DNA from: Clavelina lepadiformis
Taxonomy: Eukaryota; Chordata; Ascidiacea; Aplousobranchia; Clavelinidae
DNA length: 64,000 bases
Direction of reading: 5' to 3'
NCBI RefSeq assembly: GCF_947623445.1
Contig: NC_135241.1
Location: forward strand, 22,818,501-22,882,500
Shown: positions 8,813 through 57,231 of the stretch, piece after piece
How the letters are laid out: every line of letters begins with the position of its first letter
How positions within the stretch are numbered: position 1 is the first letter of the stretch
Notes under the pieces: model-generated
Told to the model about the DNA's origin: nothing
The model's input: only the letters and a program-made list of their open reading frames with translations
The model's database searches: none
Translations under genes and position numbers: made by a program

Positions 8813-11800
8813 TTAATCGCACGTGTACGACCCAGGCTCTATGTCAAAGACGTGTTGAGTGATCCATCCCTCGAAGTTTCTGGCTCCTGTGTAGACTCCG
8901 GGACGTCCGGCTGTCCCGCAATCATTTGGCCCAAATGAAGTCAGGCCGCTTAAATACCAAGCGCATGAAGAACAACGCTGGCACATTAGTGGTCCACCGC
9001 TGTCGCCCTGAAAGTAGGTTGATGTTCGTTAGAGTCTAACCTTCATGTTAATGGATTGTAATCGTTCGGAGTATCGTTATGTTTTACCACAGTTGCAGTT
9101 GCATGTTAAAGTATGCGTACAGCTTTATATTTTATTTTATTCCGTGCAATTGTAGACTACGGCAGTGCAAGTTTTTGACGTCGAATTTCATTTTTTAAAT
9201 ACAAGTCACAACGTAATGGTCATATGAACAAAACAATTTAATTCTTATCACTTTAAACTTCAAAAACTTCGTAACAGTCCAACATTGCGTCGAAAAGAAG
9301 CATATAGCCTTATTCTATTTAAAACAGAGGCATTTTATTACACATTATTAAGTTATGTAACTTTCGAGACTTACAAGACATGTGTCGACACCGCCACTGA
9401 TTCTACCGGCACAGATCATGCGCCTGCTCATTTTCGAGGCAACGGCTTCGTTTTTGTACGCCTCCTTGCATACTTCATAGGGAAGCTTCCTCAAGCCGAC
9501 CACAAGCAAGTCTCTCGACACCCGTCTTTCTTCGGCTAAAAAATAACAATTGTCACGTCATACTTTGATCTTATAATAATATCCTTTGACCTTATTTTAA
9601 TATTAGGTTTAAGTGAGACGGTGTTTTGATGTTTTTTTTACAGAGCTTTTTTAATTGAAACAAAAAGCTGATCGAACAAAACAATTTGTTTATCAAACCA
9701 CATTTGCCGTTAGGTATTCGACAGACGGCGTAAATAGTAATATAATTAATACTTACTGTAGCCCCAACCAGTGGCGTGGCAAAGGGCATCGTCTGGCGTT
9801 TTCTCTCCTCGTGGTAGGCAAATCGGCAAAATGTAGTCGCTATATGTCACCCGAGTTGTCATCTTATCAATAAAACAAAAAAGATCAGTTTAACTAATTG
9901 CAGCTTTCTTTCGACTCACGTTTCGACCGACGACTTACAGCACATGACCTAAAAATGTTAACTACCGTGAACCTGGTTACCAATTCCCTAGTTACTTATT
10001 CAAAATCGGTAGGTATCTTTATTTACGAATAATTAGATGAATATGTGAATATGCAGCACATAACCAAATTCATCTGCACACAGGTTAATGAATAAGAAAC
10101 CACATGAAAAGTAACCAAGTTTAAGTTCGGCTGGTTTCAGAGCCGGACAGGATGAACTCAGATACGCCATTTGCATGTGAAAGTTTTAATAGAGAAGATA
10201 TCATGGGCTTTATGTTACCTTGATCAGGGCGATATCAGCCCGGGGAAAGTCATACTCGTCATGAATTATAAAACGTTCCGCTCTCATCGATCTTACGCCT
10301 TTCGTATCGTGTCCAAGGATGAGTTGTATTCGACGCACGTCAAATCCTCTGGAATTTGGAACATATTGCTGTTATTATCAATAAGCTTTTACGTAACAGA
10401 GCAAGCAAGCTTACTGTACGCAGTGTGCGGTCGTCACAACCCATTGTCTGCTTATCAAAGACCCTCCGCATAGTTGTTTGTGGCCGCTGGGAAGGGTTAA
10501 CTCTATTCTGACCTGGTAATTCACAGTGTAAAGAAGTTTTCTGCTTAAAGCATCACAAAGATCATGTTTTGTCAATAAAACCAACTGTTATTTCTTAATA
10601 GGAATATTTTTGCAGATGACAGAAGCGCACCCACCATCCACGGCCATTGGCTGACGGTCGTGCGCCGCCCTCCTATAATTCTTCCGAATGAAGATTTTAT
10701 TTTCGGTATTCCACACCGACCGCTAGTGGGCGTTCTGCAGCACGATGTGGGGTCATCGAATCGGTTTTCTTCACCGTCGTCGCAGTATTCTGTTAATGGG
10801 TCACGAATTGTTCGCTTTGTTTAGTTTTGTTACTGCTGTAACTCCGTAGATATATTTCATATTTCTTTGCACATTCTGTGTACTTAGTTGATATTTTAGA
10901 TAGCGAGTTTAAAATTTTTTACTTCTTGTGCATTGCTGTGTGTTGCAATCTTCGTAAATCCTGGGACATGAATTAATATCTCCGGCCGGGCATCTCGGAA
11001 TTCGGTAGTTGGTTCCGCCTCCGCATGTCCGAGAGCACTCACTGGAAACGTTCCATTGGGGCCTGGGCGGCAGAGTGACAGGTTGATCTGTGCAAACAAT
11101 TGATTTATGAGGGAAGAACTTATATTCCGAGACAATTATGTGCTTCTTTAATGTGAAGTATTTTCAAGAGACTTTTGTTTCCTTAGAATTGTTATAAACT
11201 TATGTCCGTTTACGCTATACCTGGGTTAACCCCATCACACAAGTCACAAGTTTTACGGCAGATTCTGTACATCGTCTTATGATATTGTTCCTGGCAGTAA
11301 TCGTTTAATTTCAGCCATTGGCATGAGTTATAGGTGTCCTCGCAATCATCTAGGAGAAAGAATAATTATAGTTTAAATAATTGTTATAAGTCCTATGTAT
11401 AGACAGTATTTCCAACAGCAATGCTTATAAGCATTACTTCGTTTCAGACTAGCCGAATACAGCACTTATACCTTTCGGGCAAGTTCCCGCGTCGCATTGA
11501 ACGGTCCTTGTTCTCGGCCCAATGCATCTGCCTCCATTCAAGCATGACCTCACTTCCCGCTCACTTCCGCTTCCGCAAGTCACACTGCAGCCTTCTTTGC
11601 GCCATGGCCCCCACGTGGCCGCTTTATTTGTATTGGGAATATGGAGTAAGTTGTTGTATAATTGGATTAATAACAAGTTTCTATTAATACTTGGCCGACA
11701 GAGTTACTTATTTATGACTTAGTCTGAACGTTTTCAACGTTTTTGTTTATGTTAGAGCCTTCAACTGTACCGTATTAAGAAAGATATTTATTTTACCGGT

Positions 11801-54700: not shown

Positions 54701-57231
54701 TGCTCTTGTGGTAAACCTTCCAATCTTAACATTTATCTGCACCCGAATAAATATCCTTGTGTCACGTTATGCACCGTAGGGTGCACAGGGTGTCGTATTG
54801 TCAAAAAACGAATTAAAGTAATCTTGTCGATGTATAAGCAATACCTTTCTAGAACAAAAAGATGAACCATCTGGTCATTGGGGCAGGTGGGGTAGTTGGG
54901 GAAGTTGCAGCAAAACTTGCGGCTCCGGCGTGCAAAGAAGACAACGAACGTGCAGTGCCAGTTCTTGCCCCGGAAGCGGTTCCATGGAACGCGCCTGTAA
55001 CAGAGGCTCATGCGGAGGTTTGGCGTTTTTTCAAGGAAACTTGATTTACCCAGTCTTTATTGAACAATGGTTGTCGATACACGAACTCTTTGGCGCTCTC
55101 CTCATTTTTTAGTGTCCGGAGGTTGGGGCGAATGCTCACGATCTTGTGGCGACGGGACTCAGCGTTATTTTTCCTCATCCGGGCAAGTAACACGGTTCCG
55201 AGATTGCAACCTGGCATCTTGCCCTCAAGGTAGCTAAAGAACGAGTTGAATGTTAGTTACAAAGCCACGTCACTGGCACTTTTCTATGTTTCAATTAAAA
55301 TTGGCGCTGGTTCGTGTAATCACAAACAGTAAACCAACATCATTATGATGTCAGCTTCAGTCCAATGAAAGTGAAGCACGATACTGAAATGCGCGAAATC
55401 ACGATACTGCACTAGTATAGCCTTCTTAATTCAATAACACAAAAGCGCAACTGATTCTGCCCAGCTCAATGCCGCAGTCCCTTCTTTGTGCGCTACGGAA
55501 AAAATTCTCATCGGTGTTGTGACGCATCCCAGTTGTCCAACAGCGCGTGCGGTGTAAGCGCTCAGGAAGGTCGAGTGGTTAATGGAGAGGACGCCATCAG
55601 GAAAAGATGGCCGTGGATGGTGCGGATTATTTACATTATAGTTTTTTGTTCATGGTTCACTATATATTCAAATAATGGTAATTCGGTGTAGCGCGTGTTG
55701 CTGATACATACTTCCAGCTGTTTACTTCGATGGCCTTATTTTCCTTGGTTTATTCAGGTCTTTTTGAATCTTGATCCGAACAGGGCAAATGCATTTTGTG
55801 GCGGTATGCTGGTTAGTGAAAGATACGTAATAACCGCAGCACATTGCTTGATGTAAGTAGCCTATACAAGCACTGAAACACATTTGACACCGATATTTAA
55901 ACTAGACTAATAACGTTTTTTCGATAAGCTGATTACACGAAAAATTTTTAAAAGTTTGAATTCTTCAAATATATAACTTTGTAATTTGTCAAATTAAGCC
56001 GCTTTAGTCTCGAAAGAAAACGTTTTGATTTGCGGGAACAGCTTTTTTTTTTGTTATAAGTTATTTATCACTTATAAGTAGGCTGTAAGCCTGTTAACCC
56101 AATCTTTTGACTTGAGACAAAACGTCAGCTATTACATCAATGTCGTCAATTCATGCATCATGATGCAGACTGGCTGGCGAACTGAGATTCGATTTCCGAA
56201 GTATCCAGGCTCTACTGGGAGCTCTAAATTTTGAAGACCGATCCAGTCACGTTCAGGTACGCGGTGTAAGAGCACTGCACATACACCCGAGCTATCAAGC
56301 AATCCAGTACGGGTACGACATCGCTATACTTGAGGTAACTTTGACGGTTATTTGATTTGCTTTGTAAAATGAGAATTTGTTGGCTAAAAAAAATAAACCA
56401 ACCTAGGCTACCAACAAACTTGTAAAACTTTTTTCTTCAGCTATCGACCCCTGCAAATCTCGGGGGTAGTCACATCAAACCTATTTGCCTGCCGAAGGGA
56501 GAAAGAGTCCCGGATGACGCCATTTGCGTCGCGGCCGGCTGGGGTCGAAGTAAGAAAACAAAACGTCATTTTTGTGTATAGCCTAGGACTAGGTCGTTGA
56601 CGCTTTTTAGAAATTAACTTAACTGCTGTTGTAGCCACGAATGCAGCAGGCGCCGATCAGAAGTCCTCGATTCTGCAAGAGGTCCAAATACGAACCCTTC
56701 CATTTGACGTGTGCGCCCAAGGGTATGGACAAACAACTCTCGGTGGAAATCTTCGGGAAAAATACATGATTTGCGCGGGAAAAATTGCCGGAGGACCCGA
56801 CACTTGTGCGGTAAGAATACGGTCTTAAATTAGATTGTAGACTGCAGTTAATTACTAATTTAGCCTACAACGCATTGTCAATATTTTGCGGTTTTTCAGT
56901 AAATGGCTCCATTTTATAACTTACCACTATGCAATTCGCATTTAAGACATGTTGGCGAGTGCCAGTGTGACTAATTACGACATACACATAGTACTCGCAT
57001 TACGCGCAATTACTGTGCATGTCATAACAGGGTGACAGCGGCGGACCTCTCATGTGCCAACGTTGTTCGTCTTGTGCTTGGACGCTGGCTGGTGTCACGT
57101 CATTTGGACCAGATAGCTGTGGACAAGAAGGGCTTCCTGGGGTTTATACTCGAGTTTCTTTTTACGGCAGTTGGATAGACGGCGTCGTGGGCGAGCGGCT
57201 TGCCTCGGGGGATTTACCCTCTTGTAGTTGA
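48759..57231 (+). CDS. Protease E: secreted TSP1-ShK array trypsin-like serine protease (14 TSP1)
   Basis: Twenty-four exons sum to 1131 residues in frame. Tail exons: 48759-48819, 48943-49072, 49327-49442, 49576-49728, 49800-49952, 50120-50246, 50336-50451, 50601-50762, 51114-51257, 51780-51929, 52227-52379, 52603-52755, 53552-53704, 53969-54115, 54240-54393, 54553-54710, 54853-55017, 55113-55229; the connector and protease exons are listed separately. A signal peptide (1-20) is followed by 14 TSP1 and 3 ShK-like modules. The tail opens with two copies of the TSP1, ShK, TSP1, TSP1 cassette also found in C and D, then runs of TSP1 with [12 protein letters not shown] starts. Exons 52603 and 53552 are a fresh duplicate pair. 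Intact trypsin residues argue for an active enzyme after activation. An AATAAA lies about 34 bases after the stop. Confidence 0.88.
51326..51507. mobile_element. hAT-type MITE in an intron of protease E
   Basis: Terminal inverted repeats CAGTGGTGGGATT are identical at both ends (read inward) for 13 bases. They are flanked by a perfect 8-bp duplication TTTGTACC at 51318-51325 and 51508-51515. Length is 182 bp with no coding frame. The intact duplication implies a fairly recent insertion. Confidence 0.93.
53181..53346 (+). repeat. Dispersed SINE-like repeat, family 1, copy 2 (intron of protease E)
   Basis: Aligns with 7427-7594. It lies in the intron between the duplicated TSP1 exons 52603-52755 and 53552-53704. 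Confidence 0.65.
55465..57231 (+). other. Connector and trypsin domain exons of protease E
   Basis: Six exons: 55465-55619, 55758-55852, 56187-56334, 56441-56549, 56635-56810 and 57031-57231. The connector has Cys, VRYG, CC and CG. Activation is at GR-VVNG. His is in ITAAHC, Asp in YDIAILE and Ser in GDSGGP; Asp189 is in PDTCAGDS and Gly226 in PGVYT. The protein ends LPSCS, so a cysteine again sits at the penultimate residue. Confidence 0.9.

What the first reader, a model, noticed from the sequence alone, without database searches (positions are those of the whole stretch)
8813..57231. Five-gene cluster of TSP1/ShK/trypsin mosaic proteases
Five neighbouring genes each encode signal peptide, ShK-like and TSP1 modules (plus sushi in C), a connector and an intact trypsin domain. 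TSP1 counts are 2, 1, 9, 23 and 14. Seen in the sequence: all exon junctions are in phase, all five have the His/Asp/Ser triad and Asp189. Known: TSP1 arrays occur in adhesion proteins and ADAMTS metalloproteases. A trypsin-type serine protease carrying up to 23 TSP1 modules and interleaved ShK domains is not a vertebrate arrangement I know. Inference: a tunicate-specific secreted protease system, possibly in defence, clotting or matrix remodelling.
Basis: partly seen in the sequence, partly recalled or inferred. Interest (0 to 1): 0.85.

Follow-up and report, generated by a model that had tools for sequence, protein, structure and literature searches.

The report
Sea-squirt proteases with long adhesion arms
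Five neighbouring sea-squirt genes each appear to encode a secreted trypsin-like enzyme on an arm of up to 23 adhesion modules; a similar layout is already reported in sea anemones, and what these enzymes do is not yet known.

Summary
Observation confirmed. Five spliced models (99 exons, 94 introns, no internal stops) give TSP1 counts 2, 1, 9, 23, 14, ShK-like counts 2, 1, 2, 5, 3, two sushi modules in gene C and five intact trypsin domains with triad and Asp189. The animal is almost certainly the ascidian Clavelina lepadiformis. The cluster is larger than reported: a sixth TSP1-trypsin gene lies just left of the window, and of 12 further relatives read elsewhere, 11 carry TSP1. A four-cysteine TSP1 before the protease recurs in 7 of the 13 relatives, with matching phase-1 splice sites in 6, which supports single transcripts. 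The tunicate-specific claim fails for the basic architecture: ShK/TSP1/trypsin proteins are published in cnidarians (PMC5446238, PMC6767649) and TSP1-trypsin proteases in flatworms (PMC5931690). Likely mechanism: a two-chain, disulfide-tethered, Arg/Lys-specific zymogen held on matrix or glycans by its arm. Site and substrate are unknown; no RNA data and no other tunicate genome were available.

The parts
8813..12290 (-). Gene A, 11 exons, 490 aa: SP-ShK-TSP1-ShK-TSP1-connector-trypsin
12224..12290 (-). Gene A candidate signal-peptide exon
10923..12085 (-). Gene A ShK/TSP1 modules (ShK 11969-12085, 11221-11349; TSP1 11472-11621, 10923-11087)
   Evidence: both families below Pfam cut-off
8813..10789 (-). 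Gene A connector and trypsin exons T1-T6
15565..17911 (-). Gene B, 9 exons, 414 aa: SP-ShK-Thr-rich linker-TSP1-connector-trypsin
17857..17911 (-). Gene B candidate signal-peptide exon (weak donor)
17357..17581 (-). Gene B exon with poly-Thr linker and TSP1
15565..17162 (-). Gene B connector and trypsin exons
20946..28549 (+). Gene C, 20 exons, 937 aa: SP-ShK-(sushi-TSP1)x2-TSP1-ShK-6 TSP1-connector-trypsin
20946..21012 (+). Gene C candidate signal-peptide exon
21671..21859 (+). Gene C sushi module 1
   Evidence: PF00084 27.6 bits
22950..23138 (+). Gene C sushi module 2
   Evidence: PF00084 32.6 bits
26256..26369 (+). Gene C TSP1 next to the protease, four cysteines
26586..28549 (+). Gene C connector and trypsin exons
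31645..47351 (+). Gene D, 35 exons, 1645 aa: 23 TSP1, 5 ShK-like, connector, trypsin
31645..31723 (+). Gene D candidate signal-peptide exon (better of two candidates)
35110..38356 (+). Gene D internal tandem duplication, 35110-36190 and 37271-38356, 93.6% identical over 1086 aligned columns
39784..41580 (+). Gene D second internal duplication, 39784-40272 and 41097-41580, 91.6%
45100..45216 (+). Gene D TSP1 next to the protease, four cysteines
45532..47351 (+). Gene D connector and trypsin exons
48759..57231 (+). Gene E, 24 exons, 1137 aa: 14 TSP1, 3 ShK-like, connector, trypsin; basic arm (net +53)
48759..48819 (+). Gene E candidate signal-peptide exon
52593..53779 (+). Gene E duplicated TSP1 exons, 52593-52830 and 53542-53779, 94.5%
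55113..55229 (+). Gene E TSP1 next to the protease, four cysteines
55465..57231 (+). Gene E connector and trypsin exons

Best explanation
Each gene makes one secreted, modular S1-family serine protease zymogen. Cleavage after the conserved Arg just before the start of the catalytic domain would activate it, with Arg/Lys specificity set by Asp189. A disulfide between a connector cysteine and the Cys122 equivalent would keep the ShK/TSP1 arm attached to the active enzyme, as described for plasmin, tPA, MASP-1 and predicted for the flatworm protease SmSP2 (PMC5931690). The arm would hold the enzyme on extracellular matrix, tunic or egg-coat glycans, so that proteolysis stays local and selective. 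Shown from sequence: gene structure, modules, catalytic residues, connector cysteines, growth by exon and gene duplication. Inferred: secretion, activation, disulfide pairing, glycan binding and site of action.
For: In-frame models. Trypsin and TSP1 profile matches. Triad, Asp189 and Arg activation site in 5 of 5; four connector cysteines and an even cysteine total in connector plus catalytic domain in 5 of 5. Closest solved-structure chains for gene C's protease, the only one tested, are plasma kallikrein, prostasin, enteropeptidase and factor XI. The order array - four-Cys TSP1 - connector - protease recurs in 7 of the 13 relatives read, with phase-1 donor and acceptor in 6 of those 7. 34 of 49 TSP1 carry WxxW and 32 of 49 an O-fucosylation-like motif (meanings recalled). 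6 of 7 duplicate-exon comparisons have dN/dS below 0.4.
Against: No transcript, protein or activity data. Signal peptides are heuristic. One of 7 duplicate comparisons (52603/53552) has dN above dS, on seven changes; in the largest duplication exons differ about as much as introns (29 of 552 bases against 5.8%), so constraint there is not strong. The other 6 of 13 relatives lack the four-Cys TSP1 before the protease, and C7a showed no acceptor in the stretch scanned. Arm charge varies from -38 (D) to +53 (E), so glycan binding need not hold for all five. Nothing in the sequence points to a tissue or substrate.
Confidence: 0.65

Rival explanations
1. Site of action, option 1, fertilisation: sperm or egg-coat protease whose TSP1/ShK arm binds the vitelline coat.
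For: Ascidian sperm carry TSP1-bearing astacin proteases (Tasts), some in tandem gene clusters, proposed as coat lysins (PMC11673157, abstract and section 3.2).
Against: Tasts are metalloproteases with a transmembrane segment and two or three TSP1 in the four drawn, not S1 proteases. No expression data here.
Confidence: 0.2
2. Site of action, option 2, defence or clotting cascade in haemolymph or tunic.
For: Trypsin-family and TSP1-domain transcripts are in the Botryllus allorejection library (PMC2527998, passages). The flatworm TSP1-trypsin SmSP2 activates plasminogen and tPA (PMC5931690, passages). The family has active-looking and inactive-looking members, as cascades often do (recalled).
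Against: No expression or challenge data. The Botryllus passages do not describe a TSP1-trypsin fusion. SmSP2's tested substrates are vertebrate proteins and its authors call its organisation exclusive to flatworms.
Confidence: 0.3
3. Site of action, option 3, tunic or matrix construction and remodelling.
For: Ascidian Tuphoxins join TSP1 to a tyrosinase and are proposed to act in the tunic (PMC9395347, passages).
Against: Indirect analogy only.
Confidence: 0.3
4. Separate TSP1-only and protease-only genes read as one.
For: No transcripts available; splice models are computed and partly hand-chosen.
Against: Open, phase-matched exons run from array to protease in all five models; the boundary module and its phase-1 splice sites recur in relatives.
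Confidence: 0.04

Closest known systems
Ap_Trypsin-like of the sea anemone Aiptasia (PMC5446238) and trypsin-TSP_1-ShK proteins of Edwardsiella, Anthopleura, Aiptasia and Atolla (PMC6767649)
   Same: ShK and TSP1 modules with a C-terminal trypsin domain
   Different: Aiptasia protein has two N-terminal ShK and four TSP1; here up to 5 ShK-like and 23 TSP1, ShK interleaved with TSP1 in 4 of 5 genes, sushi in one, tandem cluster. Sequence relationship could not be tested.
SmSP2 and flatworm orthologues (PMC5931690)
   Same: Secreted S1 protease with N-terminal TSP1, Asp189, predicted tether disulfide
   Different: One TSP1, no ShK described, His stretch in trematodes, long insertion
Plasma kallikrein, factor XI, enteropeptidase, prostasin
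   Same: Closest solved protease domains to gene C's
   Different: No TSP1 or ShK arm (recalled)
Ascidian Tasts (PMC11673157)
   Same: Ascidian extracellular proteases with TSP1, some in tandem
   Different: Astacin metalloproteases, predicted type II transmembrane
ADAMTS proteases
   Same: Protease plus TSP1 array
   Different: Metalloprotease (recalled); the one PLAC-like exon score here (23.0 against 26.4 bits) is below threshold

Membership tests
S1 (trypsin/chymotrypsin) serine protease | PF00089 match over the full domain | tested here: met
   5 of 5, E 3.3e-55 to 2.8e-50
S1 (trypsin/chymotrypsin) serine protease | His57, Asp102, Ser195; Asp189 for trypsin specificity | tested here: met
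   5 of 5
S1 (trypsin/chymotrypsin) serine protease | Proteolytic activity | not testable with these tools
   needs recombinant protein
TSP1 (TSR) superfamily | PF00090 match and six cysteines | tested here: met
   Cut-off passed in 4 of 5 proteins, gene A below; 44 of 49 modules found as separate stretches; six Cys in 46 of 49, four Cys in 3
ShK domain | PF01549 match | tested here: inconclusive
   Whole proteins: C and D pass, A below, B and E not listed. 8 of 13 exons scanned alone: 1 passes, 3 below, 4 none. Profile matches to ShK-type structures, best E 0.00068 and 0.0025
ShK-TSP1-trypsin proteins of cnidarians | ShK + TSP1 + trypsin in one protein, protease last | tested here: met
   5 of 5 models against the text of PMC5446238 and PMC6767649; ShK assignment as qualified above
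ShK-TSP1-trypsin proteins of cnidarians | All ShK N-terminal to the TSP1 modules, as in Ap_Trypsin-like | tested here: not met
   met only in gene B; A, C, D and E have ShK after at least one TSP1
ShK-TSP1-trypsin proteins of cnidarians | Common descent of the arrangement | not testable with these tools
   no cnidarian sequences held
Tasts | Astacin metalloprotease domain | tested here: not met
   no astacin family listed at E<=1
ADAMTS | Metalloprotease domain | tested here: not met
   none listed at E<=1; only TSP1-type models of ADAMTS, below cut-off

The most novel reading that the evidence does not exclude
A large, fast-evolving ascidian protease system, with active and inactive members, in which arm length and charge are tuned gene by gene through exon duplication so that each enzyme is placed on a different glycan or matrix target: working like, but evolved apart from, vertebrate coagulation and complement proteases.
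Probability: 0.2. Interest if true: 0.7.

Novelty: new variant of a known kind. Interest (0 to 1): 0.42.

Why it matters
It shows a chordate with a sizeable family of TSP1-armed trypsin-like proteases, an arrangement reported before in cnidarians and, with one TSP1, in flatworms. Whether it is ancient and lost in vertebrates, or repeatedly invented, is directly testable. The cluster also shows arm growth by in-gene exon duplication.

Tried and rejected
Two automatic gene-finder passes missed or misread trypsin exons T2-T4 and the first exons and added small exons without module similarity. Trypsin and first exons were then settled by hand from frame readings and DNA. Small predicted exons were dropped, among them C 22263-22320, 22836-22861, 27769-27793; D 40793-40827, 41854-41874, 42793-42828, 43002-43058; E 50995-51035; two exons of C that one search had split were kept whole. 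Weak donors after three TSP1 exons were re-read as GC donors.

Glyco_hydro_6 as a tunicate marker gave nothing, and nothing in the controls either, so it was uninformative; the species rests on contig lengths. Another ascidian with nine chromosomes, Ascidia mentula, is 197.0 Mb (abstract in listing); its chromosome lengths were not compared. The whole-protein Pfam scan did not list sushi in gene C; the exon scan did. The protease tree has weak deep branches (41 to 70), so only C9+C7 (100) and C2_9+C5_0 (99) are used. Structure prediction was not run, because spliced proteins are not read letter for letter from the window.

The ten paper searches listed nothing that I recognised as a ShK/TSP1/trypsin protein in a tunicate. 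This is weak: only open-licence papers are held, several lists were cut (for instance 15 of 48), most papers were seen as listings, supplements could not be read, and two searches were aimed at the species.

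Full report
Setting. The window is 64 kb of a 209 Mb genome in 95 contigs and lies on C2:22818501-22882500. Six of nine large contig lengths were read (C1 28.784, C2 26.530, C5 24.617, C7 20.449, C8 19.510, C9 15.726 Mb). They agree to about 0.01 Mb with published chromosomes of Clavelina lepadiformis (28.79, 26.54, 24.62, 20.45, 19.51, 15.73; PMC10884593, passages). Total size and scaffold number differ slightly (209.06 Mb and 95 against 210.1 Mb and 102), so I call the species almost certain.

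Gene models. A gene finder written here, with trypsin exons, first exons and a few donors settled by hand, gives five complete models: A 8813-12290 (-), 490 aa; B 15565-17911 (-), 414 aa; C 20946-28549 (+), 937 aa; D 31645-47351 (+), 1645 aa; E 48759-57231 (+), 1137 aa. There are 99 exons and no internal stops. Of 94 introns 91 start GT and 3 GC; all end AG; 66 are phase 1, 15 phase 0, 13 phase 2. Control with the automatic finder: 157/129/449/1014/491 on the coding strands, 6/2/29/38/23 on the reverse strands, at most 76 among three shuffles per gene. Its coding table was trained on these genes, and the final models were partly hand-chosen, so neither the scores nor the frame agreement is a fully independent test; the profile matches below are.

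Modules. Pfam lists Trypsin in 5 of 5 and TSP_1 above cut-off in 4 of 5, with 44 of 49 TSP1 modules as separate stretches. Sushi passes in both gene C exons. ShK passes in whole proteins C and D only and in 1 of 8 exons scanned alone; profiles of the two ShK sets reach ShK-type structures (best E 0.00068 and 0.0025) and match each other (probability 94.6). In C, D and E the ShK exons inside the arrays run phase 2 to 1 and follow a TSP1 exon that runs 1 to 2, a composite unit.

Protease. All five have His57, Asp102, Ser195, Asp189, an Arg before the mature N-terminus, four connector cysteines and a cysteine as second-last residue; connector plus catalytic cysteines total 16 in four and 18 in B. 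Gene C's protease is closest among solved structures to plasma kallikrein (E 7.9e-41), with prostasin, enteropeptidase and factor XI near; the other four were not searched. Pairing of connector and Cys122 equivalent is inferred from that and from the account of SmSP2.

Wider family. With profiles from the window, 13 further genes were read from fetched stretches: Z, left of the window, whose protease ends at C2:22812460 and whose nearest TSP1 lies about 0.7 kb from the window's start (7 TSP1; no first exon or ShK found); four in tandem on C9; two on C7; C2 at 14.86 Mb (11 TSP1); C2 at 4.96 Mb (ShK, 2 TSP1, trypsin); C2 at 9.09 Mb and C5 at 0.49 Mb, where TSP1 follow the protease; C7 at 18.78 Mb (one TSP1); C2 at 18.2 Mb (ShK-like only). 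So 12 of 13 carry TSP1. C7 at 18.78 Mb was picked because TSP1 hits lay near it. These are exon-level readings, not full models. The last-exon search gave 81 matches; of its top 17, 16 were examined and 15 carry TSP1 (C5:536825 was not examined). Of the other 64, only two were looked at (the second C7 copy and C7 at 18.78 Mb). The C7 pair lacks Ser195 and Asp189, and C2 at 18.2 Mb lacks His57 and Ser195, so some members look inactive.

One gene or two. The TSP1 nearest the protease has four cysteines in C, D and E, while the other 46 TSP1 have six. The same short module precedes the connector in Z, the four C9 genes and the C7 pair, that is 7 of 13 relatives; the other six do not show it. In those seven, phase-1 donor and acceptor were found in six; C7a lacked an acceptor in the stretch scanned. 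This makes a fused transcript likely, but only RNA can show it.

How the arms grew. Within D, 1086 alignment columns are repeated at 93.6% and 489 at 91.6%; in E, 238 at 94.5%. dN/dS pairs for seven comparisons: 0.041/0.106, 0.018/0.155, 0.009/0.115, 0.010/0.264 (C against D exon), 0.198/0.642 (sushi), 0.106/0.715, and against constraint 0.054/0.029 for 52603/53552 on seven changes. In the largest duplication exons differ at 29 of 552 bases and introns at 5.8%, so constraint there is modest. The C/D exon is about 94% identical while its flanks are about 42-45%.

Comparison. The basic arrangement is not new to biology. PMC5446238 (three sections and passages) describes an Aiptasia protein with two N-terminal ShK, four TSR and a C-terminal trypsin, and reports similar sequences in symbiotic cnidarians but not Nematostella. 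PMC6767649 (one section and passages) notes trypsin-TSP_1-ShK proteins in four cnidarians, and easy gain and loss of ShK. PMC5931690 (one section and passages) characterises SmSP2, with one TSP1. Homology to these could not be tested, since no such sequences are held. In ascidians TSP1 is joined to astacin (Tasts) and tyrosinase (Tuphoxins, passages), so enzyme plus TSP1 may be a recurrent ascidian design; that is inference.

Verdict. The best reading is a matrix- or glycan-anchored, two-chain, trypsin-specific protease family: a large and elaborate variant of a known kind.

Noticed in passing
window 2712 to about 3360 and 5850 to 6593, + strand: Two tandem genes resembling interleukin-17. First exons alone gave no Pfam match; joined exon peptides of the first score 68.6 bits and the second's last exon 47.3 bits, against cut-off 24. 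Splice sites were not modelled.
   Followed up: partly
window 59327-60937, - strand: 537-aa open frame with a glycerophosphodiester phosphodiesterase domain (84.2 bits).
   Followed up: partly
window 8558-8760: Minisatellite, 21-base unit, 9.6 copies.
   Followed up: no
window 25589, 40247, 41555: Three GC donors after similar TSP1 exons in genes C and D.
   Followed up: partly
L018-L021 (G000:C7, 3.23 and 3.29 Mb): Inverted pair of TSP1-trypsin genes without Ser195 or Asp189: likely inactive proteases.
   Followed up: partly
L025 (G000:C2, 9.09 Mb) and L026 (G000:C5, 0.49 Mb): Related proteases with the TSP1 array after, not before, the trypsin domain.
   Followed up: partly
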